A program made the translations under genes and the position numbers. Below, in pieces: positions 57,703 through 60,939 of a stretch of DNA of 64,000 bases (positions are counted from its first letter, which is position 1; every line of letters begins with the position of its first letter). Where the stretch lies: positions 62,001 to 126,000 of the forward strand of contig CALCXM010000074.1 of the NCBI GenBank assembly GCA_937905825.1. Direction: 5' to 3'. Under the pieces are notes generated by a model. The model was given only the letters and a program-made list of their open reading frames with translations. It ran no database searches and was not told the origin of the DNA. This DNA comes from an uncultured bacterium (GTDB lineage Bacteria > Planctomycetota > UBA1135 > GCA-002686595).

Positions 57703-58176
57703 ATGCCACGTAACTACAAGTCCACTGCCGTCTACATCAAGCCCGATCCCAAGCTGGGCTCGATGATCGTGTCGAAGTTCATCAACAAGCTGATGCTTGA
57801 CGGCAAGAAGAGCACCGCTCAAAAGATCTTCTACGATGCGATGGAGATCGCTTCCAAGCAGTTGCCCGATGCTGAGGACCAGTTGGAGATCTTCAACAAG
57901 GCCCTCGACAACGTGCGCCCCATGGTTGAGGTTCGCTCCAAGCGCGTCGGTGGTGCCAACTACCAGGTGCCCCGCGAAGTGAAGCGCAACCGCCAGCAGA
58001 GCCTCGCGATCCGTTGGATCGTGGACAACTCGCGCAAGAAGAAAGGCAAGCCCATGTCGGTGTGCCTCGCTGCGGAATTGGTCGACGCCTACAACGGCAC
58101 TGGCGCATCCGTGCAGTGGAAAGAGAACATCCACAAGATGGCAGACGCCAACCGCGCTTACGCTCACTACGCCTGA
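57703..58176 (+). CDS. rpsG: Ribosomal protein S7
   Basis: 157 residues, normal length. S7 segments: SKFINKLMLDGKKSTAQKI, the central GGANYQVPREVKRNRQQSLA (16S 3' domain binding) and WKENIHKMADANRAYAHY at the end. In most bacteria fusA follows directly; here two hairpins and a Tsr3-like gene come first. The stop codon itself overlaps a GATCGGGC / GCCCGATC hairpin (58175-58193). Confidence 0.97.
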   Translation: MPRNYKSTAVYIKPDPKLGSMIVSKFINKLMLDGKKSTAQKIFYDAMEIASKQLPDAEDQLEIFNKALDNVRPMVEVRSKRVGGANYQVPREVKRNRQQSLAIRWIVDNSRKKKGKPMSVCLAAELVDAYNGTGASVQWKENIHKMADANRAYAHYA

Positions 58177-58268
58177 TCGGGCGAAGCCCGATCTCGACCT
58201 TTTCAACGCCTGCGGCCTTCGGCCGCTGGCAGCGCGAGGAGCCGGGTCAACGAGGAGTAGAGTCAAGG

Positions 58269-58296
58269 AGCCAGCCTTTTTGGGCTGGCTTTTTCT
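58269..58296 (+). terminator. Rho-independent terminator after rpsG
   Basis: AGCCAGCC / GGCTGGCT, 8-bp stem, 6-base loop, followed by TTTTCT. The best classical terminator in the window. It ends the rpsL-rpsG transcript. Confidence 0.85.
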
Positions 58297-58343: not shown

Positions 58344-58373
58344 GCGGGTGCGGGTGCGGGTGCGGGTGCGAGT
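58344..58373 (+). repeat. Hexamer repeat (GCGGGT)4 plus one variant
   Basis: Four exact copies and one with a G-to-A change, between the rpsG terminator and the Tsr3-like start. If translated in the downstream frame it would code for Ala-Gly repeats. Confidence 0.9.
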
Positions 58374-58409: not shown

Positions 58410-58862
58410 ATGATGGAGCTGTTGGACATCTTGATCTTGCGTGACCCGCGGGAGTCGGCGAAAAAGTGTTCCTTGACGCCTTTGCGCGGGATGCAGGGGA
58501 TCACTTTTGTGAACTACCATCCGGAGCGCACGATTGAGGCTGGAGGGCGCGTGCTCTTGGATCCCGACGGAGAGGAGCTGACGCAGGCGGACGCGGGGCG
58601 CGGGCTGTTCTTGATCGATTGTTCTTGGCGCCGCTTGGAGGGCTTGAATCGAACGGTGACGGGGGAGCCTGTCCGTCGTCGATTGCCGGTGCTCAAGACG
58701 GCCTATCCGCGCAAGAGCACGACCTTTGACGATCCTGATGCGGGGCTCGCCTCGGTGGAGGCGTTGTATGCCGCCGCGTGCTTCTTGTGGGGGCCGCGCC
58801 CGGAGCTACTGGCCCAGTACCGTTGGGCCGAAGAGTTTTTGGCGCTGAACCCTGAGCTATAG
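58410..58862 (+). CDS. Tsr3-like (DUF367) aminocarboxypropyltransferase homologue
   Basis: 150 residues from ATG 58410 (58413 equally possible; a GGAGGG run touches the first ATG). Matches the Tsr3/DUF367 pattern in order: DPRESAKKCSLTPLRG near the N-terminus, the DCSW block (residues about 73-76, LIDCSWRRLEGLNR), RRLPVLKTAYPRK (family RxLPxLVAANPVNYG, diverged), SVEALYAAACFL, and YRWAEEFLALNPEL (family FxWGxxFLxLN). In eukaryotes and archaea Tsr3 uses SAM to add an acp group to the hypermodified U in helix 31 of small-subunit rRNA. The DTW relatives (TapT) have DGTW instead. It sits between rpsG and an EF-G gene, which fits a ribosomal target. Activity in bacteria is unproven. Confidence 0.75.
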   Translation: MMELLDILILRDPRESAKKCSLTPLRGMQGITFVNYHPERTIEAGGRVLLDPDGEELTQADAGRGLFLIDCSWRRLEGLNRTVTGEPVRRRLPVLKTAYPRKSTTFDDPDAGLASVEALYAAACFLWGPRPELLAQYRWAEEFLALNPEL

Positions 58863-58887
58863 CTCCCGCCAAGTGTCCAATAGTGCC

Positions 58888-60939
58888 ATGGACCTCAGCC
58901 GCTTGCGGAACTTCGGAATCGCCGCTCACATCGATGCGGGCAAAACCACCGTCTCGGAACGCATGCTCTTCCACACGGGAATCGAGCGACACGCGGGAGC
59001 GGTGGATGACGGCACCGCCGTTTTGGATTGGATGCTCGAAGAACGCGAGCGCGGCATCACGATCTCTGCGGCGGCGACGCGCTTCCCATGGCGCGAGCAC
59101 GCCCTGAATTTGATTGATACGCCCGGGCATGTGGACTTCACCGTAGAGGTCGAACGCTGCATGCGCGTTTTGGATGGGGCGGTCCTGGTGCTCGACGGGG
59201 TCGTCGGGGTTCAGGCTCAATCGGAAACCGTCTGGCGCCAGATGAGTCGGCACGGGGTGCCAGCCATCGCCTTCGTGAACAAATGCGATCGGACTGGAGC
59301 GGACTTTCACGGCGCCGTCGAGAGCCTGCGCACGAGGCTGGGGGTGAACCCGGTTCCCATTCAATTTCCCGTGCTGGACCCGGCGGGGGGCATTCGGTGC
59401 CTGATCGATTTGGTGGAGTCCCGTGCGTGGTCGTTCCCGAGCCGTCCCGGCGGCTGCGCCCTGGTGGAGGTCGCCGTGCCCGAAGAGGCGATGGATGAGT
59501 TGGGTGTTTTGCGCTCCGACATGATCGATGCCTTGGCGGAGGTGGATGACGTGATTCTCTCTCGCGTGGTCGAGGACGAGGCGCCCACTATTCCCGAGCT
59601 GCGTCAGGCCCTGCGGCGCGCCGTGCTCGAGTCTTGCATGATGCCGGTCTTGTGTGGCGCTGCCCTGCGGGATGTGGGGGTGCGGCCCCTGTTGGACGCG
59701 GTTGTGGATTACCTGCCGTCGCCCTTGGACGTGCCCGCGGTCGAAGGGGTGCATCCCGTGGAGGGTCATAAGGTCCAGCGCGCCGCGGATCCCGAAGGAC
59801 CCGCCTGCGCCCTCGCGTTCAAGCTGCACTCCAATCACCACGGGGACCTGACCTTCGTGCGTATCTATTCGGGCCGGATCGCGGCCGGCGGAGTCCTGTA
59901 CAACGCGCGGACGGGCCAGAGCGAGCGCGTGGAGGAGGTTCTGCGCATTCACGCGGAAGCCACCGAGAGCATCGATGTGGCTTGGGCGGGGGATATTGTC
60001 GGTTTGAGGGGTTTGGTCAGCACGGGGACCGGGGACACCCTCTGCAGTGAGGACTACCTAGTGGCCCTCGAGCCCCTGGAGTTTCCCGATCCTGTCATCT
60101 CGCGCGTGATCGAGCTCGAACACGACGCAGACCGCGATCGGCTGAGAACAGTGCTCTCCTGGCTGTTGCACGAAGATCCCAGCTTGCAAGCCCGGGAGGA
60201 CATCTCAGGCCAATGGACCCTGAGCGGGATGGGGGAGCTGCACCTGGAGGTGATCGAGCACCGCCTGCGAACCGAGTTCAAGCTGGACATCCACGCTGGC
60301 AAACCCAGGGCTGCCTATCGGGAGACGCTCATCCGCGGGGGAGAGGCTCGCGCGGAGGTGGACCGTGCCCTTGGGGGACTCACAGCCCACGGTGTAGCGC
60401 GCGTCAGGGTCAGTCCGCGGGACCCGGCCGGGCCTCCGCGGGTCAGCTTTGCTCCGGGTGTTTTGGCTGCGCACGACTCACCCGCGGGCCACCGAGCCGC
60501 TCTTCTCCAGGAATGCCAGGTGGGGCCCCGCTTTGGCTACCCGATCTGGGCGGCCGAGCTGGAGGTCTTGGAGCTCTCGGGCGGGGATAGCGAGGAGTCC
60601 GGGGTGGTGGAGAGCCAGGCCCTGGTGGCCGCTCTGCGGCAGGCCCTCAACCCGAAAAGCGTTCGCCTGGAGGAGCCCCAGATGAGTCTGGAGATTCACA
60701 CCCCTGCGGAGTACGCCAGCGGGATTATCGCCGATTTGAACTCTAGAAAAGCGCAGATTCAGGAGGTTCAAGCGGAGGGCGCAACCCGCGCCATTCGGGG
60801 AATGGTGGCCCTCTACGGGGTCTTCGGCTATTCGACGGACCTGCGATCCCTGTCGCAGGGAAGGGCTAGCTTTTCCCTGGCTCCCTCCGGTTACCGGACG
60901 GTGCCCGAGTCCGAACTGGTGGAGCGCGGGCTGCTCTAG
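58888..60939 (+). CDS. Divergent elongation factor G (EF-G-like GTPase)
   Basis: 683 residues from ATG 58888 (a GTG at 58873 is possible). G-domain motifs are complete: AHIDAGKTT, RGITI, DTPGHVDF and NKCDRTGADF. Domain III has SGMGELHLEVIEHRL. Domain IV starts normally (AYRETL) but is shorter and diverged; the tip loop, where canonical EF-G has DGxxHxVDSS and a conserved His, reads SGGDSEESGVVES with no His. Domain V end (AEYASGIIADLNSRKAQIQ and YSTDLRSLSQGRASF) is normal. It may be an EF-G2/spare EF-G with altered translocation. Position after rpsG is that of fusA, with a Tsr3-like gene between. Confidence 0.88.
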   Translation: MDLSRLRNFGIAAHIDAGKTTVSERMLFHTGIERHAGAVDDGTAVLDWMLEERERGITISAAATRFPWREHALNLIDTPGHVDFTVEVERCMRVLDGAVLVLDGVVGVQAQSETVWRQMSRHGVPAIAFVNKCDRTGADFHGAVESLRTRLGVNPVPIQFPVLDPAGGIRCLIDLVESRAWSFPSRPGGCALVEVAVPEEAMDELGVLRSDMIDALAEVDDVILSRVVEDEAPTIPELRQALRRAVLESCMMPVLCGAALRDVGVRPLLDAVVDYLPSPLDVPAVEGVHPVEGHKVQRAADPEGPACALAFKLHSNHHGDLTFVRIYSGRIAAGGVLYNARTGQSERVEEVLRIHAEATESIDVAWAGDIVGLRGLVSTGTGDTLCSEDYLVALEPLEFPDPVISRVIELEHDADRDRLRTVLSWLLHEDPSLQAREDISGQWTLSGMGELHLEVIEHRLRTEFKLDIHAGKPRAAYRETLIRGGEARAEVDRALGGLTAHGVARVRVSPRDPAGPPRVSFAPGVLAAHDSPAGHRAALLQECQVGPRFGYPIWAAELEVLELSGGDSEESGVVESQALVAALRQALNPKSVRLEEPQMSLEIHTPAEYASGIIADLNSRKAQIQEVQAEGATRAIRGMVALYGVFGYSTDLRSLSQGRASFSLAPSGYRTVPESELVERGLL

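What the first reader, a model, noticed from the sequence alone, without database searches (positions are those of the whole stretch)
58410..58862. Tsr3-like rRNA modification gene in a bacterial ribosomal operon
Tsr3 is known from eukaryotes and archaea, where it adds an acp group in helix 31 of small-subunit rRNA. This protein keeps the DCSW block and the C-terminal WAEEFLALN pattern and lies between rpsG and an EF-G gene. If active, it points to an acp-type modification of 16S rRNA in this lineage, which I know of no report for.
Basis: partly seen in the sequence, partly recalled or inferred. Interest (0 to 1): 0.75.

Follow-up and report, generated by a model that had tools for sequence, protein, structure and literature searches.

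The report
Bacterial Tsr3-like aminocarboxypropyl transferase beside EF-G
This planctomycete gene encodes a real bacterial cousin of Tsr3, an enzyme that adds an amino-acid-like group to ribosomal RNA in archaea and eukaryotes, but the RNA base that Tsr3 modifies is a different letter in these bacteria, so its target is unknown and can be measured in cultured strains.

Summary
The gene is real (58413-58862, ATG also at 58410). It matches the Tsr3 profile PF04034 over its cut-off. Its AlphaFold model (pLDDT 90) fits Tsr3 crystal structures best (5apg, E 6e-9) and TapT only weakly (E 0.2). It belongs to a planctomycete family: all 25 sampled genomes of its order carry it, and 61 of 244 in the phylum. 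In 63 of 80 named relatives it lies between rpsG and an EF-G gene.

The acp target in archaea and eukaryotes is U966; here 966 is G in the window's genome and in all other relatives read, including complete genomes of cultured strains. The m2G966 enzyme family RsmD is present and Nep1 is not found. The gene is also not a TapT stand-in: across 244 genomes the two are independent (p = 0.72).

Bacterial homologues were reported in 2014 as the 'pc1599' family of the TDD superfamily, so the family is not new; its activity seems untested. Best reading: a SAM-dependent acp transferase acting on an unmapped uridine, most likely in rRNA, with tRNA the main rival. The neighbouring EF-G is a divergent second copy; the main EF-G lies on another contig.

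The parts
58413..58862 (+). Tsr3-like (TDD superfamily, probably pc1599 family) protein, 149 aa; alternative start ATG at 58410
   Evidence: Pfam PF04034 41.3 bits over cut-off; NF002621 full-length but below cut-off; 5apg TSR3 E 3.4e-10; fold match to Tsr3
58464..58472 (+). KCS motif (residues 18-20); C19 and S20 invariant, K18 in 57 of 60
58617..58628 (+). D69-C-S-W72 motif: D is the presumed catalytic base, W shapes the SAM pocket in Tsr3/TapT
   Evidence: D69 and W72 invariant in 60 of 60; aligned with D70/W73 of V. distributa Tsr3; role from PMC7026641
58704..58763 (+). family-specific YPRxSxxFxDPxxGLASxEA block (residues 98-117), longer than the archaeal NPxHYGKPYxLSxxEA; holds invariant E116
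   Evidence: the middle of the loop is the least confident part of the model
58266..58293 (+). terminator-like hairpin followed by U-rich tail, between rpsG and the Tsr3-like gene
   Evidence: region folds at -21.1 kcal/mol, z -3.18; not listed by the consensus scan
57703..58176 (+). rpsG, ribosomal protein S7
   Evidence: ORF and conserved gene order
58873..60939 (+). divergent second EF-G, 10 bp downstream of the Tsr3-like gene, closer to the mitochondrial recycling factor EFG2 than to mtEFG1
   Evidence: TIGR00484 639 bits, below cut-off 659, versus 917.6 for the main EF-G on contig C154; 43% identical to it; mtEFG2 431.8 vs mtEFG1 396.9 bits

Best explanation
[quoted passage not shown] It would bind SAM with the acp group facing the RNA, use D69 to deprotonate N3 of a uridine, and transfer the acp group. 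The target is a uridine in ribosomal RNA that has not been mapped, plausibly in the small subunit, and it is not position 966. Shown here: homology, predicted fold, conserved catalytic residues, near-fixed place in the S12-S7-EF-G gene cluster within much of this order, G at 966. Inferred: acp chemistry, rRNA as substrate, the site.
For: Tsr3 profile over cut-off, and 59 of 60 relatives match PF04034 while DTW appears only weakly in 7 (best E 0.01). Model pLDDT 90; best fold matches are the two Tsr3 structures, TapT far behind. D69, W72 and E116 invariant in 60 of 60, D11 in 54 of 60; these are the near-universal TDD residues (PMC4275035), and the D and W are needed for full acp transfer in yeast Tsr3 and E. 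coli YfiP (PMC7026641). Gene between rpsG and EF-G in 63 of 80 relatives and next to one of them, or inverted in the same slot, in 8 more. Presence independent of TapT/DTW and co-occurring with it in 15 genomes, so not simply a TapT substitute.
Against: No substrate or activity evidence. The Tsr3 target position is G966, so the link from Tsr3 homology to rRNA is weakened. In other planctomycete families the gene is not beside ribosomal genes. A crude comparison of 16S U positions between 19 carriers and 13 non-carriers gave no convincing candidate; 23S was not compared.
Confidence: 0.5

Rival explanations
1. It is an acp transferase, but its substrate is tRNA (for example U47 or U20), as for TapT and DTWD1/2.
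For: TapT/DTW was not found in the window's genome (genome 88.6% complete); other TDD bacterial families act on tRNA (PMC7026641, PMC6895100); some planctomycete members also score weakly with the DTW profile.
Against: Presence is independent of DTW across 244 genomes (p = 0.72) and 15 genomes carry both. It lacks the N-terminal zinc region of TapT (149 aa only), the fold is Tsr3-like rather than TapT-like, and in this order it mostly sits among ribosomal genes.
Confidence: 0.27
2. It modifies helix 31 after all, either another helix 31 base or G966 itself with an acp group, in place of or on top of m2G966.
For: Structural likeness to Tsr3; S7, encoded next door, assembles the 3' domain that holds helix 31 (general knowledge).
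Against: G966 in all genomes compared and no U at 965-970 in the window's genome and most relatives. RsmD family present in all 61 genomes. Known Tsr3 chemistry is on U or m1-pseudouridine.
Confidence: 0.07
3. It is a Tsr3-fold protein with a different activity: an assembly factor, a methyltransferase, or the RNase role predicted in 2014.
For: Position 75 is mostly L/V where V. distributa Tsr3 has the SAM-contacting A76 (PMC7026641); the loop after strand 5 is family-specific; the 2014 prediction (PMC4275035).
Against: Catalytic D and W invariant; both experimentally tested TDD branches turned out to be acp transferases (PMC7026641).
Confidence: 0.16

Closest known systems
pc1599 family of the TDD superfamily (Burroughs and Aravind 2014, PMC4275035)
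   Same: Bacterial Tsr3 homologue in the planctomycetes-verrucomicrobia-chlamydiae group; same conserved D/E, DsoW and E residues; the family profile here finds relatives in Planctomycetota and Verrucomicrobia.
   Different: The paper predicted an RNase. It reported ribosomal neighbours for archaeal TSR3 and, in the passages read here, none for this bacterial family. Identity with pc1599 itself was not computed here (sequence not at hand).
Archaeal/eukaryotic Tsr3 (16S/18S rRNA acp transferase; PDB 5apg, 5ap8)
   Same: Pfam family, predicted fold, DCSW motif, C-terminal W..F...N block, ribosomal-gene neighbourhood as in some archaea.
   Different: Low identity (29% in the fold alignment), longer YPR..DP..GLAS loop, well below the NCBIfam equivalog cut-offs, and the Tsr3 target base is G instead of U.
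TapT/YfiP (DTW domain, tRNA acp3U47)
   Same: TDD superfamily, DxSW-type motif, presumed SAM-dependent acp transfer.
   Different: Lacks the zinc-binding N-terminus; no DTW hit for the window protein; weak fold match; independent genomic distribution.

Membership tests
Tsr3 (rRNA acp transferase) | Match to the Ribo_biogen_C (PF04034) profile | tested here: met
   41.3 bits, cut-off 29.9
Tsr3 (rRNA acp transferase) | NCBIfam equivalog level match (NF002621, NF053630) | tested here: not met
   48.9 of 152 and 44.5 of 300 bits
Tsr3 (rRNA acp transferase) | Tsr3-type fold | tested here: met
   5apg E 6.2e-9, TM 0.74 by query length
Tsr3 (rRNA acp transferase) | U (or m1-pseudouridine) at helix 31 position 966 as target | tested here: not met
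   G966 in own 16S and in all other genomes compared
Tsr3 (rRNA acp transferase) | acp transfer from SAM | not testable with these tools
   needs biochemistry or LC-MS
TDD superfamily | D/E after strand 1, D-small-S/T-W motif, E in penultimate helix | tested here: met
   D11 54/60, D69 and W72 60/60, E116 60/60; the window protein has DCSW, but position 71 is A or N in some relatives
pc1599 family | Bacterial TDD proteins mainly in the PVC group, distinct from Tsr3 and DTW | tested here: inconclusive
   distribution fits; no direct comparison with pc1599 or the P. brasiliensis protein
TapT/DTW | Match to the DTW profile (PF03942) | tested here: not met
   no hit at E <= 1 for the window protein; 7 of 60 relatives weak, best E 0.01
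TapT/DTW | Cysteine-rich zinc-binding N-terminal extension | tested here: not met
   149 aa, single core domain

The most novel reading that the evidence does not exclude
Planctomycetes carry an acp-modified uridine in their ribosomal RNA at a site different from the archaeal and eukaryotic one, made by this enzyme: the first acp nucleotide in a bacterial ribosome and a case of a Tsr3-type enzyme with a shifted target.
Probability: 0.4. Interest if true: 0.7.

Novelty: new member of a known kind. Interest (0 to 1): 0.42.

Why it matters
Tsr3 function is understood through a single rRNA site, U966/U1191. A widespread bacterial branch with intact catalytic residues, where that site is G, means that Tsr3-type enzymes either act elsewhere on the ribosome or switched substrate. 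Because cultured carriers with complete genomes exist (Pla86, Pla163, Poly30), one nucleoside-mass-spectrometry experiment can decide, and could reveal the first acp nucleotide in bacterial rRNA.

Tried and rejected
Helix 31 acp3U966: rejected, G966 everywhere compared. Replacement of TapT: no anti-correlation. Loss of RsmD as a sign of altered helix 31: RsmD family present in all 61 genomes. m1acp3Psi pathway: no EMG1/Nep1 in the own genome. Search for a candidate target by comparing 16S U positions in 19 carriers and 13 non-carriers: only 294, 603 and 1005, taken as phylogenetic noise. acp on the neighbouring EF-G in the manner of diphthamide: considered; by eye the domain IV tip (LELSGGDSEESG) has no histidine, no further test. 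Mobile origin: no plasmid hit. Conserved gene neighbourhood outside the S12-S7 cluster: no shared neighbour found with a crude ORF caller. My early carrier/non-carrier labels from PF04034 were wrong for several genomes; the family's own profile corrected them.

Full report
The observation. The open frame ending at 58862 has ATGs at 58410 and 58413, the latter with a well-placed GGAGG. Its composition by codon position matches the neighbouring ribosomal genes. Pfam PF04034 (Ribo_biogen_C, the Tsr3 C-terminal family) scores 41.3 bits against a cut-off of 29.9 and is the only Pfam hit at E <= 1. NCBIfam's DUF367 model NF002621 matches residues 6-148, but well below its equivalog cut-off. In the PDB only V. 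distributa TSR3 is hit by the single sequence, E 3.4e-10; the family profile also reaches S. solfataricus TSR3.

Relatives. The named relatives are Planctomycetota, among them the complete genomes Pla86, Poly30 and Pla163, with a few Verrucomicrobia and two records labelled Myxococcales and Deltaproteobacteria. With a profile of 60 members, all 25 sampled genomes of the order are positive and 62 of 244 in the phylum; one of these (G162) is the DTW gene itself, leaving 61. PF04034 alone misses many.

Neighbourhood. In 63 of 80 relatives the gene lies between rpsG and an EF-G gene. In 7 more only one of the two neighbours was found, some of them cut by the contig end, and in one (L069) the gene is inverted in the same slot. 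In families elsewhere in the phylum, and in the two genomes checked from families f6 and f7 of this order, the gene is not next to these genes. In the window a strong hairpin with a U tail lies between rpsG and the gene, while only 10 bp separate it from EF-G. That EF-G is not the main one: the genome holds a better-scoring EF-G elsewhere (917.6 against 639 bits), 43% identical. The one in the window resembles mitochondrial EFG2 slightly more than mtEFG1, the main one the reverse. This recalls the spdEFG1/spdEFG2 split in planctomycetes (PMC3150367), but the subfamily was not settled by a tree.

Fold and active site. The AlphaFold model is confident (pLDDT 90.1, pTM 0.86) except for the family-specific loop near residues 101-110. 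Foldseek's only significant matches are the Tsr3 structures; E. coli TapT comes next at E 0.2. D69, W72, E116, R89, Y98, P99 and R100 are invariant in 60 sequences. D69 and W72 align with D70 and W73 of V. distributa Tsr3; the D is the presumed catalytic base and the W shapes SAM binding (PMC7026641).

The target. The 16S fragment on the same contig, about 62 kb before the window, reads TTCGAAGCAACGCG: A965, G966, C967, and no U from 965 to 970. All other genomes compared, carriers and non-carriers, have G966. RsmD-family genes are present in all 61 relatives and Nep1 is not found. In yeast and archaea the enzyme acts on U or m1-pseudouridine at this place, and PMC7026641 already notes that bacteria have a methylated G there.

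tRNA as alternative. DTW/TapT was not found in the own genome, which fits a substitute role. But over 244 genomes DTW is as frequent in carriers (15 of 61) as in non-carriers (40 of 183), Fisher p = 0.72. Genomes are related, so this test is only indicative.

What is known. Burroughs and Aravind (PMC4275035) named a bacterial TDD family, pc1599, mainly in the planctomycetes-verrucomicrobia-chlamydiae group, and found a Planctomyces brasiliensis homologue from an archaeal Tsr3 query. They predicted RNase activity, before Tsr3 and TapT were shown to be acp transferases. PMC6895100 states that TSR3 orthologues predominate in eukaryotes and archaea, not bacteria. I found no paper testing the bacterial family, within an open-licence library.

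Conclusion. A real and well-conserved bacterial Tsr3-like enzyme of an already recognised but uncharacterised family. acp chemistry is likely by homology, rRNA as substrate is favoured by context in this order, and the classical site is excluded.

Noticed in passing
window 58873-60939; G000:C154:4781-6826: The EF-G in the S12-S7 cluster is a divergent second copy (EFG2-like by best PDB scores), while the main EF-G is on another contig; the cluster slot seems to be held by the paralogue, perhaps across this order (only the own genome was searched for a second EF-G).
   Followed up: partly
window 58344-58371: A run of GCGGGT hexanucleotide repeats lies between the hairpin after rpsG and the Tsr3-like gene.
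   Followed up: no
L069:6001-6438: In one relative (OFTM34) the Tsr3-like gene is inverted within the same slot between rpsG and EF-G.
   Followed up: no
L085, L102, L106, L107, L112, L113: Copies in records labelled Myxococcales, Deltaproteobacteria and Verrucomicrobia without the ribosomal neighbours found: transfer, separate history, short flanks or mis-binning.
   Followed up: no
PF04034 misses many members of this bacterial family (for example G041, G042, G045, G046, G048), so surveys with that model undercount it.
   Followed up: yes
16S loci L131-L139, L199: Many 16S matches stop at model position 873; in G042 the next piece follows directly, so this is probably how the search cut the sequence, but elsewhere it was not checked for an insertion.
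   Followed up: no
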